A stretch of DNA of 48,546 nucleotides from Marinilabiliales bacterium (GTDB taxonomy: Bacteria; Bacteroidota; Bacteroidia; Bacteroidales; F082): positions 1 through 48,546 of the forward strand of contig PKTA01000176.1 of assembly GCA_002869365.1 (NCBI GenBank), written 5' to 3'. Every line of letters begins with the position of its first letter. Within the stretch, counting starts at the first letter, position 1. Made by a program: the position numbers and the translations under genes. Positions 30,603-42,113 of this stretch are shown here, piece after piece. The notes beneath the pieces were generated by a model, which saw only the letters and a list, made by a program, of their open reading frames with translations, was not told where the DNA came from and did not search any database.

Positions 30603-31070
30603 ATGGAAAAACTCACAGAAATTTTCAATGATTATAGTGATTCAAGCAGAGATAGTTTGATTCCAATTTTACAGGATATCCAAACTCAGGAGGGCTATTT
30701 ATCCAAAGAATCTATAGTAGAGGTCGGCTCACATTTAAATATGCCTTCAAGCAAGATTTATGGAGTTGCAACATTCTACAACCAATTTAAATTTCAGCCC
30801 AACGGCAAATACCATATCCAGGTTTGCAGAGGTACTGCCTGTCATGTTTTAGGATCTGCTACAGTTTTACAAGAACTCGAAAAGCAATTAAAAATTAAAG
30901 CAGGTCAAACTACTCGCGATCAATTATTTAGCCTGGAAATAGTAGCATGTATTGGGGCCTGTGGTTTAGCACCCGTAATTTCAGTAAACGGAGAGTTTCA
31001 TGCCAATGTTGATGCCGGTAAATTGAAAAATATTCTTGAAAACTGCAAAAAGATGGAGGATGTTGAATAA
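30603..31070 (+). CDS. hydC: [FeFe]-hydrogenase subunit HydC (NuoE-like, 2Fe-2S)
   Basis: A 155-residue thioredoxin-fold [2Fe-2S] protein of the NuoE/HydC type. The four cluster ligands are Cys75 and Cys80 (CRGTAC) and Cys116 and Cys120 (CIGAC), with the usual helical N-terminal part (IPILQDIQTQEGYLS; IYGVATFYNQF). It passes electrons between the flavin subunit HydB and the hydrogenase HydA in cytoplasmic NAD(P)-linked trimeric hydrogenases, some of which bifurcate electrons with ferredoxin. Its stop overlaps the hydB start by one base (TAATG), giving translational coupling. Confidence 0.92.
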   Translation: MEKLTEIFNDYSDSSRDSLIPILQDIQTQEGYLSKESIVEVGSHLNMPSSKIYGVATFYNQFKFQPNGKYHIQVCRGTACHVLGSATVLQELEKQLKIKAGQTTRDQLFSLEIVACIGACGLAPVISVNGEFHANVDAGKLKNILENCKKMEDVE

Positions 31071-33007
31071 TGACAAATACTTATATAAATAATAGTCTGA
31101 ACTCATTTTATAATAATCCTGAGGCAGGAAGAATTATCAAAGGAGAAGAATACAAAGTAGTAAGCAGGCAATCCGTTGAAAAACCTATAATATATGTAGG
31201 AGCAGGAACTTGCGGACTTGGAGCAGGTGCAAGCAAAACTATTTCCTCCATAAAATCGTATATGGAAAGCCACAAAATAGATACTGAAATCGTAGAAGTA
31301 GGATGTATAGGACTTTGTTCTGCCGAACCAATAGTAGACATACAACTTCCTGGCTTTAACCGCATTGCCTTTGGAAATATTACAGAAGAAAAAGTTGATT
31401 CTTTGATGGATAGTATTTTGAATATGGAAATACCTTCCGGGATAGGAACTCTTTATCAATTGCCAATTGAAAATGCCAGAAATTGGGATGCTGTTTTAAA
31501 CTTTAAAGATTATCCATATTTCAAAAATCAAAAGCGCCTGGTACTTCAAAATTGCGGCATCCTAAATCCTGTAAGTATTGCAGAATTTATCTCAGCCGGA
31601 GGCTATTCTTCATACTTGAAAACTATTAAAACCAAATCCTCAATGGAAGTTTGTAATATGGTTGAGGAAAGTGGATTACGTGGCCGTGGTGGCGGTGGCT
31701 TTAAAACCGGTACTAAGTGGAAATTTGCACATAATACCGAGGCGGACCAAAAATATTTAATATGCAATGCCGACGAAGGTGACCCGGGTGCTTTTATGGA
31801 CAGAGCAGTTATAGAAGGTGACCCGCATAGATTACTTGAAGGCATGATGATTGCCGCTTATGGTATTGGAGCGAGCAACTCATATGTTTATATACGTGCT
31901 GAATATCCATTGGCAATTGAAAGATTAAAAATTGCTATTTCTCAGGCTAAAAAATATGGATTGTTGGGCGAAAACATCTTTGGCAGTGGTATCGATTTTG
32001 AAATTAAAATAAAAGTAGGCGCAGGAGCCTTTGTTTGTGGTGAAGAAACTGCATTAATAAACAGCGTGGAAGGAAAAAGAGGAATGCCCAAACCACGTCC
32101 GCCATTTCCCGCGGTAAAAGGACTTTTCGATAAACCAACTGTTATCAATAATGTGGAAACACTTTCCTGTTTACCTGAAATTATTCCAAATGGCGTGGAT
32201 GCCTTTAAGGCAATTGGAACCGAAAAAAGTAAAGGAACAAAGGTTTTTGCACTTTCAGGAAAAGTTAAACTTACCGGACTGGTAGAAGTACCTATGGGAA
32301 CAACAATACGTAAAGTAATTTTTGATATTGCAGGAGGTGTTCCAAACAATAAAAAGTTTAAATCGGTGCAGATAGGAGGCCCATCCGGAGGTTGTATCAC
32401 AGAGGAAAACCTTGATATAGAGGTAGATTACGATTCACTCCTAAGCATAGGAGCTATGATGGGTTCAGGTGGACTTGTGGTTATGGATGAAGATACCTGC
32501 ATGGTAGATGTTGCTAAATTTTTCATGGATTTTATCCAAAGAGAAAGTTGTGGAAAATGTATCCCATGTCGTGAAGGTACCAGCAGAATGCTTGAAATAC
32601 TTGAAAACATCACACATAAACCTGCCACATATTCAAAAAATGAGGCTCTAGAAAGATTTAGAGGAGTTACGCAACTTGAAAAGTTAGGAAAAGTAATTAA
32701 AGAGACCTCATTATGTGGATTGGGACAGACGGCACCAAACCCTGTTTTAAGTACAATTAAATGGTTTAGAGATGAATATGAAGAACACATATTCGACAGG
32801 AAATGTCGTGCTAATGTATGCACCGAATTAAGAACATTTACAATTGATGTGGATAAATGCACAGGATGTACAGTTTGTGCTAAAAAATGCCCCACAGACG
32901 CGATAATCGGAAGTAGAAAATCTCCACATTTTATTGTAGAGGATAAGTGTATAAGCTGTGGAACCTGCTATGATGTTTGTAAGTTCGACTCAATTGTAAT
33001 ATCATAA
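31070..33007 (+). CDS. hydB: [FeFe]-hydrogenase subunit HydB (NuoF-like, FMN and NAD(P)H binding)
   Basis: A 645-residue flavoprotein. Order of domains: N-terminal thioredoxin-like [2Fe-2S] domain (about 35-125) with Cys48, Cys79 and Cys83 visible but Gly/Ala where a fourth Cys would be expected; NuoF-type FMN/NADH domain (about 180-470) with GLRGRGGGGFKTGTKW and the CNADEGDPGAFMDR block; SLBB and [4Fe-4S] region with SCGKCIPCREGT and CGLGQTAPNP; two C-terminal [4Fe-4S] ferredoxin motifs (CTGCTVCAKKCP; CISCGTCYDVCKF). This is the usual trimeric-hydrogenase HydB plan. It would pass hydride electrons between NAD(P)H and the Fe-S chain, with a possible second branch to ferredoxin. hydA follows after 10 bases. 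Confidence 0.94.
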   Translation: MTNTYINNSLNSFYNNPEAGRIIKGEEYKVVSRQSVEKPIIYVGAGTCGLGAGASKTISSIKSYMESHKIDTEIVEVGCIGLCSAEPIVDIQLPGFNRIAFGNITEEKVDSLMDSILNMEIPSGIGTLYQLPIENARNWDAVLNFKDYPYFKNQKRLVLQNCGILNPVSIAEFISAGGYSSYLKTIKTKSSMEVCNMVEESGLRGRGGGGFKTGTKWKFAHNTEADQKYLICNADEGDPGAFMDRAVIEGDPHRLLEGMMIAAYGIGASNSYVYIRAEYPLAIERLKIAISQAKKYGLLGENIFGSGIDFEIKIKVGAGAFVCGEETALINSVEGKRGMPKPRPPFPAVKGLFDKPTVINNVETLSCLPEIIPNGVDAFKAIGTEKSKGTKVFALSGKVKLTGLVEVPMGTTIRKVIFDIAGGVPNNKKFKSVQIGGPSGGCITEENLDIEVDYDSLLSIGAMMGSGGLVVMDEDTCMVDVAKFFMDFIQRESCGKCIPCREGTSRMLEILENITHKPATYSKNEALERFRGVTQLEKLGKVIKETSLCGLGQTAPNPVLSTIKWFRDEYEEHIFDRKCRANVCTELRTFTIDVDKCTGCTVCAKKCPTDAIIGSRKSPHFIVEDKCISCGTCYDVCKFDSIVIS

Positions 33008-34832: not shown

Positions 34833-36830
34833 ATGGAAGTAAAAGGCACAGATAAAATTTTGGTTTATACCGTAAAAGACCGGTGCAGAGTATGTTACAC
34901 CTGCGTCAGGGAATGTCCGGTAAAAGCCATCAGGATTATAAACGGTCAGGCAGAAGTAATGGCTGAACGTTGTATAGCCTGTGGTAACTGTGTCAATATT
35001 TGTAGTCAGGGAGCGAAAACATTCAATAAACAAGTTGAGGAAGTTGAGAAGTTGCTAAAAAGTGATGAATTGGTAATTGCTGCAGTAGCTCCAAGTTTTC
35101 CGGCCGAATTCACCGAAATCGACAACAATACAGAATTTGTTGGAATGCTTAAAAAACTGGGGTTTAAAGGAGTTGTAGAAGTATCTTTTGGAGCAGATTT
35201 AGTTGCCAGAGAATACAAATCACTTTTAAGTAATAACGCCAACAAATCATTTATTTCTTCCGATTGCCCTGCTGTTGTATCTTGTATAAGGAAGCATCAT
35301 CCTGAACTGACCTCCTCACTTGCTCCAATTGTTTCTCCAATGGTAGCCATTAGTCGTGTTTTGCGTGAAAAATATGTGAAACCTATAAAAATTGTTTTTA
35401 TTGGTCCATGTATAGCTAAAAAAGGTGAATCAGATGAAGTTGACAATGCAATAACATTCACTGAATTAAGACAGTTATTAATGTCAAAAAACATTAATAA
35501 ATACAATATAAAACCTTCAGAGTTCGATCCTCCTCATGCAGGAAAAGGCTCTGTTTTTCCGGTTAGTCATGGCTTACTAAATACTATGGGAAAGTCTGCT
35601 GACGTTACTGATTGCAGTGTAATTGTTGCTGATGGCAAAAAGAATTTTATAGATGCAATTACTGAATATGAAAAGGGAAACCTAAAAGATAAGCACCTAC
35701 AACTATTATGTTGCGATGGATGTATTATGGGACCTGGTATGTCGAAAAATGGTAGCCGACTAAATCGTAGAAATAAGATAAGCACTTATTCACGCGACAA
35801 ACTTAATAAACTTAATCTCGCCGACTGGTATCATCAGATGCAGAAATACAAGACCATTGACCTTCATAGGAGTTTTGATGCTGTGGATTGCCGGATCGAT
35901 AAGCCTTCAGAAGAAGCAATAAATTATGCTCTTAAAAGGATGGGTAAGAATACTCCTGAGGATCATCTTAATTGCCGCGCTTGTGGTTATGACACCTGTC
36001 GGTTACATGCAATAGCAATAGTTAACGGATTTGCAGAGGTTGAGATGTGCTTGCCATACAGTATCGAAAAAATGCATCAAACCATCAGCAACCTTAATAT
36101 TTCAAACGAAAAACTTGCCAATGCCCGCCAGGCTTTAAAACAATCGGAAAAACTGGCAAGTATGGGACAACTTTCGGCAGGCATAGCCCATGAACTAAAC
36201 AATCCTCTTGGCGTTATATCAATGTACAGCAATATTCTTAAAGAAGAAGCAAATCCCGATGATCCAATTCTGGAAGACCTGGATTTAATTGTGGAACAGG
36301 CAGAAAGGTGCAAAAACATTGTTGGTGGATTATTAAATTTTGCCAGAAAAAATCAGGTAAAACCTGATAAAACAGATATAGTTGATTTCTGCCGTCATAG
36401 TCTCAATTCAGTTATTATTCCGGAAAATATAGAGGTTAACATAAACACAGAAAGTACTCAAATTTATGCTGAAATAGATAAAGATCAAATGATGCAGGTT
36501 CTTAGTAATCTTGAAAAAAATGCTATAGATGCTATGCCATCCGGAGGTAACTTAAATGTAAACATCCTGGATAAAATCGATGATATTGAAATTGTTATTT
36601 CAGACACAGGTAGTGGCATAAAAGAAGATGATATGGATAAGATATTTACGCCATTTTTTACCACCAAAGGTATTGGAAAAGGGACAGGAATGGGACTACC
36701 ACTGGTTTACGGAATTGTAAAAATGCATAAAGGTCAGATTAATGTTGTATCCAATGCTAATCCTGATAATGGCCCTTTGGGGACAAAATTCATAATCACA
36801 TTACCAAAAAGAACGAAAATCTCAAATTAA
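34833..36830 (+). CDS. Hydrogenase-like sensor histidine kinase (HydS-type, [FeFe] group C1-like)
   Basis: A 665-residue fusion with no membrane helix, so cytoplasmic. Order: two [4Fe-4S] ferredoxin motifs (Cys18-Cys28; Cys47-Cys57); a compact H-cluster domain (about 75-340); a PF04060-type [4Fe-4S] domain (Cys381, 384, 389, 406; RACGYDTC); HisKA helix with phospho-acceptor His453 (GIAHELNNPLG); HATPase domain (Asn563; DTGSGI at 591-596; GTGMGLPLVYG). All four H-cluster ligands are kept (Cys145, Cys193, Cys293, Cys297), but the catalytic proton-relay Cys is Asp144 (SSDCP) and the L2 Met is Gly191. This is the pattern of sensory [FeFe] hydrogenases linked to kinases. It likely senses H2 or redox state and phosphorylates the neighbouring REC proteins. 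Confidence 0.88.
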   Translation: MEVKGTDKILVYTVKDRCRVCYTCVRECPVKAIRIINGQAEVMAERCIACGNCVNICSQGAKTFNKQVEEVEKLLKSDELVIAAVAPSFPAEFTEIDNNTEFVGMLKKLGFKGVVEVSFGADLVAREYKSLLSNNANKSFISSDCPAVVSCIRKHHPELTSSLAPIVSPMVAISRVLREKYVKPIKIVFIGPCIAKKGESDEVDNAITFTELRQLLMSKNINKYNIKPSEFDPPHAGKGSVFPVSHGLLNTMGKSADVTDCSVIVADGKKNFIDAITEYEKGNLKDKHLQLLCCDGCIMGPGMSKNGSRLNRRNKISTYSRDKLNKLNLADWYHQMQKYKTIDLHRSFDAVDCRIDKPSEEAINYALKRMGKNTPEDHLNCRACGYDTCRLHAIAIVNGFAEVEMCLPYSIEKMHQTISNLNISNEKLANARQALKQSEKLASMGQLSAGIAHELNNPLGVISMYSNILKEEANPDDPILEDLDLIVEQAERCKNIVGGLLNFARKNQVKPDKTDIVDFCRHSLNSVIIPENIEVNINTESTQIYAEIDKDQMMQVLSNLEKNAIDAMPSGGNLNVNILDKIDDIEIVISDTGSGIKEDDMDKIFTPFFTTKGIGKGTGMGLPLVYGIVKMHKGQINVVSNANPDNGPLGTKFIITLPKRTKISN

Positions 36831-36843
36831 AAAAAATAAAATC

Positions 36844-37236
36844 ATGATAAATAATAAGAAACTTGTTTTGATAGTAGACGATGATCCAGACTACTTATTA
36901 CAACTTAAAACAAATGTTGAAAGTTTTGGTTTTAAAGTTGTTACAGCAGAAAATGTTAAAGATGCACTGGAAGTTCTAGATACAAAACCCGACCTTGCTA
37001 TCCTCGACCTTATGATGGAAACTCAGGATGCCGGATTTGTTCTCTCCTATAAAATTAAAAAGAGATATCCTGATGTTCCTGTGATAATTGCAAGTTCGGT
37101 AACTTCAGAAACCGGGCTAAACTTTCATCTGGAAACCGAGGAAGACAGGAACTGGATAAAAGCCGACAAATATCTTGAAAAAGGTATCCGTAGCGATCAA
37201 TTGCACCGTGAAATAAACAAACTTTTAAAACTATAA
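36844..37236 (+). CDS. Stand-alone response regulator (REC only), partner of the hydrogenase-like kinase
   Basis: A 130-residue REC domain with no output part. DDD at 12-14, phospho-acceptor Asp55 (LAILDLMMETQDAGF) and Ser84/85 are visible. The usual Lys-Pro near the end is replaced by LEKGI (Lys113, Gly), so the switch region is not standard. It starts 13 bases after the sensor kinase stop and ends 13 bases before the REC-kinase gene. That makes it the best candidate for direct phosphotransfer from the sensor, for example as an intermediate in a relay. The PDLAILDxMMxTQxxGF stretch is shared with the REC protein at 30087, suggesting a duplicated pair. Confidence 0.85.
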   Translation: MINNKKLVLIVDDDPDYLLQLKTNVESFGFKVVTAENVKDALEVLDTKPDLAILDLMMETQDAGFVLSYKIKKRYPDVPVIIASSVTSETGLNFHLETEEDRNWIKADKYLEKGIRSDQLHREINKLLKL

Positions 37237-37249
37237 TAAAATCCTAACC

Positions 37250-38371
37250 ATGGAAAAGTTAAGAGTTTTAGTTGTTGACGACGAGCCGGGAATAAGGTCG
37301 GGCGTGAGCAGAATATTGCGAAATTACAGCATAGGATTTCCTTTTATGGAAGACGACTTTTCCTTTGAAACAATAGAGGCGGAAACAGGAGAAATCGCTC
37401 TGGAAATTATTAATAAAAACGCACCCGATATTATTCTTCTCGACAACAAACTACCTGGCATACAGGGAATTGATTTATTAGAAATAATAAGTAAAATGAG
37501 ATTGGATACGGCCGTAATGATGATTACATCTTATGCTTCTCTGGATATTGCCGTAAAAGCAACAAATCTGGGTGCTTACAATTTTGTACCGAAACCATTT
37601 ACTCCTGTCGAATTAAAATCGTCAATAGAGAATATTAGCAAACATCTCTTCCTGAAAAGAATGACCCGCAAAATGAAGGAAGAGGGAAAACAGATACGTT
37701 TCCAGTTTCTATCGGTACTTTCTCATGAACTCAAATCTCCTTTAAATGCCATAGAAGGTTATTTACGGATAATGGAAGAAAAGCAGGTTGGTGAAAACAT
37801 TGAAGACTATATGTCGATGATAGACAGGTCTTTAATACGGATAAAAGGAATGCGAAACCTGATTATGGATATGCTGGATTTAACAAAACTTGAGTCTGGT
37901 AAAAAGTCGCGAAAACTTATTAAAACAGATTTGAACTATTTGGCAAATATGGCTCTCGACACTGTGAAGCCATTGGCAATCCAGCATAATGTTACTCTTA
38001 ACTCAAACATCGAAGAAGACTTAGTTATTACTGTTGACAAAGATGAAGTTGAAATTATTTTCAATAATTTACTCTCCAATGCTGTAAAATATAACCATGA
38101 AAATGGGGAAGTTAATTTCTCCGTTCACAAGAATAACTCAAATATCGAAATTATTGTAAAAGACAGTGGAATTGGCATATCCAAGGAAGATCTGCCAAAA
38201 TTATTTGAGGAATTCAGCCGTATAAAAACTTCAGAAACAAGAGATATCGCAGGTACCGGATTAGGACTCTCCATAACAAAAAAAATGGTCGAACTGTATC
38301 AGGGAAACATAAAAGTAGACAGCAAACCTGGCATAGGCACAACTTTCACTATTGAATTACCAATTGCATAA
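37250..38371 (+). CDS. REC-histidine kinase without sensor or output domain
   Basis: A 373-residue protein with REC first and kinase second. REC: Asp10-Asp11, phospho-acceptor Asp65 (ILLDNKLPG), Thr93 and Lys115-Pro116, with a short insertion after helix 1 (about 26-38). A helical linker (about 125-150) leads to the HisKA domain with His159 (LSHELKSPLNA) and the HATPase domain (Asn277; DSGIGI; GTGLGLSITKKM). It has no membrane helix, PAS or DNA-binding domain, so its input is probably phosphorylation of its own REC domain. Its end overlaps the hydG region: the preferred hydG ATG is at 38382, 10 bases after this stop codon. Confidence 0.85.
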   Translation: MEKLRVLVVDDEPGIRSGVSRILRNYSIGFPFMEDDFSFETIEAETGEIALEIINKNAPDIILLDNKLPGIQGIDLLEIISKMRLDTAVMMITSYASLDIAVKATNLGAYNFVPKPFTPVELKSSIENISKHLFLKRMTRKMKEEGKQIRFQFLSVLSHELKSPLNAIEGYLRIMEEKQVGENIEDYMSMIDRSLIRIKGMRNLIMDMLDLTKLESGKKSRKLIKTDLNYLANMALDTVKPLAIQHNVTLNSNIEEDLVITVDKDEVEIIFNNLLSNAVKYNHENGEVNFSVHKNNSNIEIIVKDSGIGISKEDLPKLFEEFSRIKTSETRDIAGTGLGLSITKKMVELYQGNIKVDSKPGIGTTFTIELPIA

Positions 38372-38381
38372 AACAAGACTC

Positions 38382-39809
38382 ATGAAATTTACTCCCGAAC
38401 AATACGTTATAGCCGATGAAGCCCAAAAACCATATATCGATACAGAAGAAATATGGTCATTTCTAAATAATGCCAAACCCACAAAAGAAAGAGTTGAAGA
38501 GATCATCAACAAATCCTTAAATAAGAATCGTCTTAATATGGAGGAAGTTGCCACATTAATTCAGGCTGACGAACCCTATCAGATAGAGATGATTAAAAAT
38601 GCTGCCAAACAACTTAAAGAAAAAGTTTATGGCAAAAGAATAGTTCTTTTTGCCCCACTTTATGTGGGAAATTTATGCATGAATAATTGCGAATACTGCG
38701 GCTTCAAATCAAGCAATAAAGAAACTGTTAGAAAAACTTTAACCAAAGAAGAACTTATTAGTAGTGTTGAAGCACTTGAGGAAAACGGTCATAAACGATT
38801 GATACTTGTTTATGGAGAGCATAAAAAATATTCTCCTGAATATATAGCTGAAACCGTTAAAACTGTGTATGGAGTAAAAACTAAAAATGGAGAAATAAGA
38901 AGAGTAAACATCAACGCTGCGCCTTTAAGTATTGAAGGCTTTAAAACTGTTAAAGAAGCAGGCATATGAACATACCAGGTATTTCAGGAAACATTTCATC
39001 CCCAGGCATATAAACATTATCATCGAGGAGGTAAAAAAGCCGATTATCTCGATCGGCAAATTGCTCTCGACCGTGCACAGGAAGCAGGTCTTGATGATGT
39101 TGGAATTGGTATTTTATTTGGCCTTTATGATTGGCGTTTCGATCTTTTGGGTCTCATCCGTCAGACCAATCACCTGGAAGCATGTTATAATGTTGGTCCT
39201 CACACAATTTCATTTCCCCGATTGCAAGATGCCTCAGAATTTAAGGTAGATCCCAAATACAAAGTTAAAGATGAGGAATTTACCCGAATTATTGCCATTC
39301 TCAGGCTTGCAGTTCCCTATACAGGCTTGATACTTACTGCAAGGGAACCTGCTCATATTCGTCAGGAAGTTTTGCAATATGGTTGCTCTCAAGTTGATGC
39401 GGGAACAAAAATTGAGTTGGGAGCATACTCCAGAAATGAAAATGGAAAACAAAATTTAAAACAGGAACAGTTCTTAATTAATGATGACAGATCGCTTGGT
39501 GATGTTATCGACGAACTAATGCAAAACGATTATCTCCCCTCCTTCTGTACAGCTTGCTACAGAAAAGGCAGAACAGGAGAACATTTTATGGAGTTCTCGG
39601 TGCCGGGTTTTATAAAACGCTTTTGTACACCTAATGCCATCTTAACTCTGGCAGAATACATCTGCGATTACGCAAAAGAAGATACTGCTATAAAGGGCTG
39701 GCAACTTATAAATAAAAATATAGAGGCTCTGGGTGAAGCAAAATTACAATCTACAGTAAGAAACAAAATTGAACTAATTAAGACAGGGGAAAGAGACCTC
39801 TACTACTAA
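38382..39809 (+). pseudogene. hydG: HydG, H-cluster maturase, interrupted by an in-frame TGA
   Basis: Read through one stop codon, this frame gives a full-length HydG of 475 codons, the radical-SAM tyrosine lyase that makes the CO and CN- ligands of the H-cluster. The N-terminal part has the radical-SAM Cys99-x3-Cys103-x2-Cys106 (CMNNCEYC) and ends ...VKEAGI at codon 195. Codon 196 is TGA (38967-38969) where HydG proteins have Gly (AGIGTYQ). From codon 197 the same frame continues without fault: TYQVFQETFHPQAY, DDVGIGILFGLYDWRF, then the second-cluster ligands Cys389, Cys392 and Cys415. There is no frameshift and no usable ATG restart before the C-terminal part. A single G-to-T change would explain it. 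It may be a true nonsense mutation, a sequencing error or a read-through codon. Confidence 0.85.
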
Positions 39810-41014
39810 TGAAAGGGAAAGATAGCAAACCACATATAGGAATTTTTGGAAGACGAAATAACGGCAAAAGTTCTTTCATAAACTTAATTTGCGGACAGGA
39901 AGTGGCCATAGTGTCTGATTTCGCTGGAACTACAACAGATCCTGTTAAAAAATCTGTGGAAATTTTCGGAATTGGACCAACAATTATTATTGATACAGCC
40001 GGTATTGATGATATTGGGGAGTTGGGTTCAAAAAGGATTGAAAAAACATTTGGAATTATTAAAACCATCGACCTGGCCATCCTCCTGCTTGCAAATAATG
40101 AATTTGGAGATTATGAAGAAAATCTGATTAACCATTTTAAGGATTACGATCTGCCATTTCTTATTTTTCATAATAAATCGGATGAAACTAAACTTGATGA
40201 TAATCTTAAAATTAATCTTCTTCAGAAGTTTGGTAAAGAAATAATAGACATTAATACTATCGACGGCACTCATCTTGAAGACATTACTGAAACCATCCGT
40301 ATTAATTTCCCTGAATCAGTGTTTTTAAAACCTTCGCTATTGGAAGGACTGGTAAAACCAAAAGAAGTTGTGCTGCTGGTAACACCAATTGATAGTGAGG
40401 CTCCTGAGGGAAGGATGATACTCCCCCAGGTAATGGCAATTAGAGATGTTCTTGATCAGCATTGTATATGCGTATGTGTTAGAGAAACAGAGTTGGAAGA
40501 TTTTATGAAATTGAAAATCAAACCCTCGCTGGTTATTACCGACAGCCAGGCTTTTGGGTATGTTTCAAAAATCATCCCCGGGGATATTCCTCTGACGGGT
40601 TTTAGCATAGTATTTGCCAGGATGAGAGCAAATTTTGAGAAATATGTTGAAGGCACACCACACCTATCTAAACTAAGGGATAATGATAAAGTTTTAATAC
40701 TTGAATCATGTACTCATCATTTGAGTTGTGAGGATATAGGCAGATACAAACTCCCCCGATGGATAAAAGAATTCACAGGTAAAAATATTGAATTTGAGGT
40801 AATTGCAGGTTTCAACAACATTAAAGCCGACATCAAAGATTATGCAATGCTAATTCAATGTGGAGGGTGTGTGGCAACCAAAAAACAAATTGCGAACCGC
40901 TTAAAACCTGCTATTGAAGCAGGGATTCCAGTTTCTAACTATGGAATGGCGATAGCCTGGTTAAATGGAATATTTAAGCGATCAATAGAACCATTTCAAG
41001 AAATAAGAACATAG
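39809..41014 (+). CDS. hydF: [FeFe]-hydrogenase maturation GTPase HydF
   Basis: A 401-residue GTPase scaffold that carries the 2Fe precursor of the H-cluster to HydA. The P-loop is GRRNNGKSS (14-22), the switch region follows as AGTTTDPV, DTAG is at 62-65 and NKSD at 122-125. The C-terminal iron-sulfur domain has the HydF signature Cys301-x-His303 (SCTHHLSC) and Cys351-x-x-Cys354 (CGGC). Its ATG overlaps the hydG stop by one base (TAATG), so its translation is probably coupled to hydG; the early TGA in hydG could therefore also lower HydF. Confidence 0.95.
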   Translation: MKGKDSKPHIGIFGRRNNGKSSFINLICGQEVAIVSDFAGTTTDPVKKSVEIFGIGPTIIIDTAGIDDIGELGSKRIEKTFGIIKTIDLAILLLANNEFGDYEENLINHFKDYDLPFLIFHNKSDETKLDDNLKINLLQKFGKEIIDINTIDGTHLEDITETIRINFPESVFLKPSLLEGLVKPKEVVLLVTPIDSEAPEGRMILPQVMAIRDVLDQHCICVCVRETELEDFMKLKIKPSLVITDSQAFGYVSKIIPGDIPLTGFSIVFARMRANFEKYVEGTPHLSKLRDNDKVLILESCTHHLSCEDIGRYKLPRWIKEFTGKNIEFEVIAGFNNIKADIKDYAMLIQCGGCVATKKQIANRLKPAIEAGIPVSNYGMAIAWLNGIFKRSIEPFQEIRT

Positions 41015-41018
41015 TATA

Positions 41019-42113
41019 ATGATAGCAGTTGAGAATATTTTAAGGGAGAGACTTTTTGACAAAGAAAGAATTGTTGATTTGCTGAACGCAGATGCGAATG
41101 AAAGCAAATTTATATTTAATGAAGCAGCAAGAATCAGAGAAAAATATTTAGGTAAAAAAGTCCATCTCAGGGGATTGATAGAACTCACCAACAAATGCTC
41201 AAAAAACTGTTTTTATTGTGGAATAGCATCATCCAATAAAAAAATTAACCGCTATTGCCTTGGCATGGATGAGGTAGAAAGAGCCATAAAATTTACTGAT
41301 GATAATAAGTACGGAAGCATAGTTATTCAAAGTGGTGAATTACAATCTGAAGAGTTTGTTTCTTATGTGGAGAAAATACTTCATAAAATAGTGGAAATTT
41401 CCTGGGGCCGACTTGGGGTTACTCTTTCCTGTGGTGAACAATCGGAGGATACTTATCGCAGATGGCGGGAAGCAGGAGCACATCGTTACCTCCTACGCAT
41501 CGAATCTTCTGATGAAAATCACTATTATAAATTACACCCAAAAAATGCTAAACATAATTTCCAAAATCGAATAAATGCAATAAAGACTCTAAAGGAAACA
41601 GGCTATCAAACAGGCACGGGAGTCATGATTGGAAGTCCGTTTCAAACAATTGAAAATCTTGCTGATGATTTGATTTTTATGAGAGATTTAGATATTGATA
41701 TGTGCGGAATGGGACCATACATAGGGCATGAAGATACTCCCCTTTTTCAACATAAAAACATCTGCTTTAGCAAGGAAGACAGGCTTCGACTAAGTTTAAA
41801 AATGATTGCCATTTTGAGAATAATGATGAAAGACATTAATATTGCTTCAACAACGGCCATGCAAACTTTGGTTAATGGCGGAAGAGAACTGGCTCTTAAG
41901 GCTGGTGCAAATATTTTAATGCCAAATACAACTCCAGGCATCTACCGCAATCAATATGCATTATATAATAATAAACCAGGTATTGATGAAGAGGCAGATG
42001 ATAGCAAATATTCAATTGAAGGTTTGATAGAACGAGCCGGACATGAAGTTGCCTATTCAGAAAAAGGAAATTCCAAACATTACCATAAACGCATGGTATC
42101 CTGTGCTCTATAA
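41019..42113 (+). CDS. hydE: [FeFe]-hydrogenase maturation radical SAM enzyme HydE
   Basis: A 364-residue radical-SAM protein. The cluster motif is Cys60-x3-Cys64-x2-Cys67 (CSKNCFYCGI). HydE features follow: SIVIQSGELQSEEFV, RLGVTLSCGEQ, RYLLRIESSDENHYYKLHP, GTGVMIGSPFQT and DMCGMGPYIGHEDTPL. HydE takes part in building the bridging dithiomethylamine/2Fe core of the H-cluster. It starts 4 bases after hydF and is the last gene of the hydrogenase locus; a promoter-like region separates it from the flavodoxin gene. All key residues appear intact. Confidence 0.94.
   Translation: MIAVENILRERLFDKERIVDLLNADANESKFIFNEAARIREKYLGKKVHLRGLIELTNKCSKNCFYCGIASSNKKINRYCLGMDEVERAIKFTDDNKYGSIVIQSGELQSEEFVSYVEKILHKIVEISWGRLGVTLSCGEQSEDTYRRWREAGAHRYLLRIESSDENHYYKLHPKNAKHNFQNRINAIKTLKETGYQTGTGVMIGSPFQTIENLADDLIFMRDLDIDMCGMGPYIGHEDTPLFQHKNICFSKEDRLRLSLKMIAILRIMMKDINIASTTAMQTLVNGGRELALKAGANILMPNTTPGIYRNQYALYNNKPGIDEEADDSKYSIEGLIERAGHEVAYSEKGNSKHYHKRMVSCAL

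What the first reader, a model, noticed from the sequence alone, without database searches (positions are those of the whole stretch)
38967..38969. In-frame TGA at codon 196 of hydG between two intact halves
Everything on both sides of the TGA is conserved HydG in the same frame, including both Fe-S cluster motifs; the expected residue is Gly (GGA to TGA is one base). TGA is used as a normal stop elsewhere (718, 11431). Without HydG the H-cluster lacks CO and CN-, so HydABC and the sensor kinase would both be dead while their genes look intact. Options: a very recent nonsense mutation, a sequencing error, or programmed read-through. Because hydF overlaps the true hydG end, early termination could also reduce HydF.
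Basis: partly seen in the sequence, partly recalled or inferred. Interest (0 to 1): 0.85.

Follow-up and report, generated by a model that had tools for sequence, protein, structure and literature searches.

The report
Likely assembly-error stop in hydG
The stop codon in the middle of this hydrogenase-assembly gene, from an uncultured bacterium, is most likely a one-base sequencing or assembly error: otherwise identical intact copies exist, and the same draft genome has lone stops inside at least six other conserved genes, so it is probably ordinary.

Summary
In detail: hydG (38382-39809, +) has an in-frame TGA at 38967-38969, codon 196, and both halves are otherwise intact HydG.

(1) The protein database holds an intact HydG identical at the other 474 residues on a different, 67,380-base contig, and a second copy with one further difference. 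The 104 distinct hydG sequences compared all have glycine there and no stop.

(2) The window is one contig of a 223-contig draft genome. Sampled stretches of it carry lone in-frame stops (TAA or TAG) inside at least six other conserved genes. For the one tested, yaaA, an otherwise identical intact copy exists too.

(3) Such places exceed a mixed control set (14 in 1.02 Mb against 4 in 1.48 Mb, P about 0.0016), though a hand count against same-genus controls alone is not significant (P 0.08). Frameshift-like breaks show no excess. Published simulations report that low-quality reads mainly add internal stops.

(4) Nothing found supports read-through.

Best reading: a consensus substitution error (0.70). 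Main rival: a real, very recent nonsense mutation (0.27). No raw reads were available and no essential gene was seen interrupted, so the rival stays open. Interest is low.

The parts
38382..38966 (+). hydG, first part (195 codons) with the radical-SAM motif CX3CX2C
   Evidence: TIGR03955 positions 8-192, 165.6 bits; motif at residues 99-106
38967..38969 (+). in-frame TGA, codon 196 of hydG, at a site where relatives have glycine
   Evidence: 104 of 104 distinct relatives GGN; intact otherwise identical protein P0001
38970..39809 (+). hydG, second part (279 codons and the TAA stop) with the C-terminal cluster motif CX2CX22C
   Evidence: TIGR03955 positions 194-468, 304 bits; motif at residues 389-415
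39809..41014 (+). hydF, overlapping the hydG stop codon by one base
   Evidence: TIGR03918, 467.3 bits; overlap seen
41019..42113 (+). hydE
   Evidence: TIGR03956, 324.4 bits
33018..34742 (+). [FeFe] hydrogenase catalytic subunit, group A6, intact
   Evidence: NF040763, 800.7 bits over its cut-off of 765
30603..33007 (+). NuoE-like (30603-31070) and NuoF-like (31070-33007) hydrogenase subunits, intact
   Evidence: Pfam and NCBIfam
34833..36830 (+). [FeFe]-hydrogenase domain fused to a histidine kinase, intact
   Evidence: PF02906, PF00512 and PF02518

Best explanation
The in-frame TGA is most likely a single-base consensus error of this draft genome, so the living organism would have an intact hydG. 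A base at 38967 was probably miscalled or mis-resolved during metagenome sequencing or assembly. The same process is the likely source of the other lone stops in unrelated conserved genes of this genome. If so, HydG, HydF and the hydrogenases would be made and matured normally and no read-through is needed. Shown here: the TGA itself, the intact otherwise identical copies, and the other lone stops. Inferred: that the cause is technical, since raw reads were not available.
For: Intact HydG P0001 on a 67,380-base contig differs only at residue 196, and P0002 on a 10,550-base contig at 196 and 288; the window contig has 48,546 bases. None of 104 distinct relative hydG sequences has a stop. Six other genes of the same draft genome are interrupted by a single in-frame stop crossed by one profile or structure-sequence alignment: yaaA, GH17, lepA, an ABC-F protein, an iron-type alcohol dehydrogenase, a TonB-type receptor. 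yaaA also has an intact copy identical at its other 253 residues (P0121). The scan gives 14 places in 1,017,883 bases against 4 in 1,481,536 control bases, P 0.0016, while frameshift-like breaks show no excess, 5.8 per Mb against 6.7 to 14.4. Low-quality reads are reported to add mainly internal stops rather than frameshifts (PMC11017572, section 9).
Against: No read data, so a real mutation cannot be excluded. Against the same-genus controls alone, hand counts of 16 against 1 or 2 are not significant (P 0.08 and 0.20). None of the interrupted genes seen is clearly essential, and rpoB, rpoC and the tRNA-synt_1 matches are intact; a blind error process should now and then hit such genes. One of the 14 places is an ordinary gene boundary (window 29051) and several are not settled by homology. 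Three of five same-genus genomes lack hydG, so a real loss would be tolerable. The sources of P0001 and P0002 are withheld, so they may be other strains.
Confidence: 0.7

Rival explanations
1. A real, very recent nonsense mutation in the sampled strain. HydG would end after 195 residues without its C-terminal cluster site, and the hydrogenases would then stay without a finished H-cluster.
For: Three of five same-genus genomes have no hydG match at all (G001-G003, 92 to 98% complete), so the pathway is dispensable in the genus. No clearly essential gene is among the interrupted ones seen. MutY is missing above cut-off in all five same-genus genomes, which could raise the mutation rate. The rest of the gene being intact fits a fresh mutation as well.
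Against: It needs many independent fresh nonsense mutations across unrelated conserved genes with no excess of frameshift-like breaks. The yaaA stop is not the G:C-to-T:A type that MutY loss would give, judged from the residue in the intact copy. No second lesion in hydG or in the matched genes of the cluster.
Confidence: 0.27
2. Programmed or tolerated read-through of TGA (selenocysteine, a suppressor tRNA, or UGA read as glycine) that still makes full-length HydG.
For: The downstream frame is fully conserved HydG. TGA is the rarest stop in the sample, 50 of 516 long open frames.
Against: None of the 104 relatives has the TGA and near-identical copies have glycine. Release factor 2 is present, 496 bits. 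No SelB over cut-off; the best match lies next to a tRNA-Trp and is probably EF-Tu. No tRNA-Sec over the gathering score. None of the tRNAs typed at 30 loci has a UCA anticodon. The RNA after the TGA folds more weakly than its shuffles (z 1.78). TAA and TAG interrupt other genes in the same way. The genome is 88.84% complete, so absences are not absolute.
Confidence: 0.02

Closest known systems
Spurious pseudogenes from assembly errors (Cooley and Wright 2024, PMC11017572; abstract and section 9 seen)
   Same: Lone internal stops in otherwise intact conserved genes, scattered over one assembly, without an excess of frameshift-like breaks, while near-identical sequences elsewhere are intact.
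   Different: Their tests used reads and reassembly; here no reads were available and the genome is a metagenome bin, so the cause is inferred.
Ordinary nonsense pseudogene
   Same: One substitution gives a premature stop in a gene of a pathway that sister species lack.
   Different: No other decay, and lone stops recur in other conserved genes of the same assembly.
UGA read as glycine (BD1-5/SN-2 and related bacteria; PMC4032931, search listing only)
   Same: TGA stands at a glycine site.
   Different: TGA is a normal stop here, release factor 2 is present, no UCA-anticodon tRNA was seen among those typed, and TAA and TAG are affected as well.

Membership tests
HydG (TIGR03955) | profile score above the curated cut-off when read through | tested here: met
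   493.8 bits against 312.15
HydG (TIGR03955) | radical-SAM CX3CX2C and C-terminal CX2CX22C motifs | tested here: met
   residues 99-106 and 389-415; that these are HydG's two cluster motifs is recalled
HydG (TIGR03955) | one uninterrupted reading frame | tested here: not met
   TGA at codon 196 in this assembly
Spurious pseudogene from assembly error | near-identical intact copy elsewhere | tested here: met
   P0001 and P0002; P0121 for yaaA
Spurious pseudogene from assembly error | raised number of internal stops over the assembly | tested here: met
   14 against 4 places, P 0.0016; not significant by hand count against same-genus controls alone, P 0.08
Spurious pseudogene from assembly error | raw reads disagree with the consensus base | not testable with these tools
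   no reads held
UGA recoded as glycine | TGA not used as a stop and no release factor 2 | tested here: not met
   TGA ends 3 of 43 window genes; prfB over its cut-off
UGA recoded as glycine | tRNA-Gly with UCA anticodon | tested here: inconclusive
   none among tRNAs typed at 30 loci; one further match not typed and the genome is incomplete
Selenocysteine at UGA | SelB and tRNA-Sec present | tested here: not met
   neither over its cut-off; genome 88.84% complete
Selenocysteine at UGA | stable hairpin just after the UGA | tested here: not met
   -4.3 kcal/mol, z 1.78

The most novel reading that the evidence does not exclude
The stops are real: a lineage without MutY carries a genome-wide burst of fresh nonsense substitutions in dispensable genes, and this strain has just switched off all its [FeFe] hydrogenases through one codon of hydG.
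Probability: 0.12. Interest if true: 0.45.

Novelty: not a real feature. Interest (0 to 1): 0.08.

Why it matters
If real, one base would silence a whole H2-producing and probably H2-sensing system. More practically, it shows how one base of a draft genome can make a metabolic pathway look dead, and it gives a quick check within the sequence itself: count lone stops against frameshift-like breaks elsewhere in the same assembly.

Tried and rejected
Recoding of TGA: no machinery found. A second HydG in the genome: none; the only other match is at hydE. A strain-specific mutator by MutY loss: MutY is missing above cut-off in all five same-genus genomes, and the yaaA stop is not of the type expected; MutM was not tested. 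Essential-gene test: rpoB, rpoC and the tRNA-synt_1 matches are intact, which says little at this rate. Comparison by homology with stretches of related genomes covered only about 49 kb of this genome; its rows other than hydG are, or by coordinates, gene ends, stretches before a true start, or antisense frames. Of the 14 places, window 29051 is an ordinary gene boundary and several (in L235, L238, L248, L252 and L119) are not crossed by one profile; of the 4 control places L053 is the end of a hydG gene and three are unsettled. yaaA is caught by the scan but not by the 14-codon filter, because start-like codons follow its stop. A larger sample, 1,317,994 unmasked bases, added two probable cases (in L286 and L279), neither confirmed by homology. 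One search failed at an N base after printing its codon-based expectation (4.96% of random substitutions give stops; TAA 0.48, TAG 0.27, TGA 0.24). The paper search for an interrupted HydG matched 734 papers on two of three terms; only the ten listed were seen and none of them mentions HydG.

Full report
What is there. hydG runs from the ATG at 38382 to the TAA at 39807-39809 with one in-frame TGA at 38967-38969, codon 196. Each half matches TIGR03955 in adjoining profile positions (8-192 and 194-468); read through, the whole scores 493.8 bits. The radical-SAM motif is upstream and the C-terminal cluster motif downstream. Around it lie a group A6 [FeFe] hydrogenase with NuoE- and NuoF-like subunits, an [FeFe]-domain histidine kinase with response regulators, hydF and hydE. 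Against the related contig G036:C98, hydG was the only gene of the matched 25.4-42.1 kb cluster with a stop inside the gene; the other stops lie before a true start or in antisense frames. hydF begins on the last base of the hydG stop codon.

Is glycine expected? Yes. All 109 relative loci examined hold hydG; their 104 distinct nucleotide sequences have GGN at this codon and none has an in-frame stop. Of the 120 database proteins listed (out of 7,999 scored), 115 show glycine by a motif test and 5 did not match the motif. Both solved HydG relatives whose alignments were printed, 4wcx and 4rtb, have glycine there.

Intact copies. The window is the whole of contig C135 (48,546 bases) of a draft genome of 3,598,065 bases in 223 contigs, 88.84% complete. 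The protein database lists P0001, on a 67,380-base contig, identical to this HydG except for glycine at 196, and P0002, on a 10,550-base contig, with one further difference at 288. Their sources are withheld, so they may come from the same or another sample.

The rest of the draft genome. A codon-usage scan looked for stops with good coding potential in the same frame on both sides, each set trained on itself. In 1,017,883 unmasked bases of this genome, 14 such places have no start codon for at least 14 codons after the stop; in 1,481,536 control bases there are 4 (binomial P 0.0016). In the same-genus genomes G002 and G003 alone it is 0 in 294,208 bases, but hand counts of 16 against 1 or 2 are not significant there (P 0.08 and 0.20), and a uvrA-like gene of G002 (named by me from its sequence) also has an in-frame stop. 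Six other genes of this genome are firmly interrupted, because one profile or structure-sequence alignment runs across the stop: yaaA (TAG), GH17 (TAA), lepA (TAA), an ABC-F protein (TAA), an iron-type alcohol dehydrogenase (TAA) and a TonB-type receptor (TAG, with a TAA near its plug). For yaaA, the only one of the six looked up, an intact copy identical at the other 253 residues is in the database (P0121). Frameshift-like breaks number 6 in 1.033 Mb here (5.8 per Mb), against 2 in 297 kb of G002 plus G003 (6.7 per Mb), 1 in 75 kb of G036 and 16 in 1.113 Mb of named genome contigs (14.4 per Mb). With about 5% stops per random substitution, 16 stops by hand count imply about 3.5 substitutions per 10,000 bases, or about half a change in a gene as long as hydG.

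Reading. A scatter of lone stops, of all three kinds, across unrelated conserved genes, without an excess of frameshift-like breaks and with otherwise identical intact copies for both genes tested, is what consensus error looks like. Cooley and Wright (PMC11017572; abstract, section 9) report that low-quality reads mainly add internal stops rather than frameshifts and that nearly identical genomes often differ in pseudogene counts. The tests here do not fully separate error from a real recent mutation: no reads were available, no clearly essential gene was seen interrupted, and three of five same-genus genomes lack hydG, so a real loss would be tolerable. Hence 0.27 for a real mutation. If real, the hydrogenases would be inactive: leaving out HydG gave zero activity in vitro, and no active hydrogenase was produced in E. 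coli when any maturase was absent (PMC3457958, section 6).

Read-through. Release factor 2 is present. SelB and tRNA-Sec are not found above cut-off. The tRNAs typed at 30 loci include no UCA anticodon; one of 31 tRNA matches was not typed, and the set is incomplete. The RNA after the TGA folds more weakly than its shuffles. UGA read as glycine is known from BD1-5-type bacteria (PMC4032931, search listing only), but TGA is an ordinary stop here.

Organism. Named relatives are mostly uncultured Bacteroidales and Bacteroidetes genomes. The hydG contig of the nearest same-genus genome, G004, has the same length and match position as PKTD01000141.1, titled 'Marinilabiliales bacterium isolate BM719'. 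The assignment of this genome is inferred from these.

Noticed in passing
whole genomes G000-G004 (same genus): No MutY above the curated cut-off in any of the five same-genus genomes, against 16 of 31 genomes searched that have one; the single match in each of the five is endonuclease-III-sized.
   Followed up: partly
G000 sample against G002 and G003 samples: The draft genome is clearly more AT-rich (about 34% G+C) than the sampled stretches of its same-genus relatives (about 41%); the short G004 contig has 36%.
   Followed up: no
G001, G002, G003: Three of five same-genus genomes have no match to HydG (or to HydE by cross-match), so the hydrogenase system is patchy within the genus.
   Followed up: no
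L206 (G002:C60) near 2254: A uvrA-like gene (named by me from its sequence) has an in-frame TAG near its start in the sister draft genome.
   Followed up: partly
L119 (G000:C20) around 4618 and 4888, minus strand: A membrane-protein frame is interrupted twice, by TAG and TAA; only a weak carbohydrate-binding match was found.
   Followed up: partly
window 34833-38371: An [FeFe]-hydrogenase domain fused to a histidine kinase, a response regulator and a receiver-kinase protein lie directly upstream of hydG, which suggests H2 sensing; not followed.
   Followed up: no
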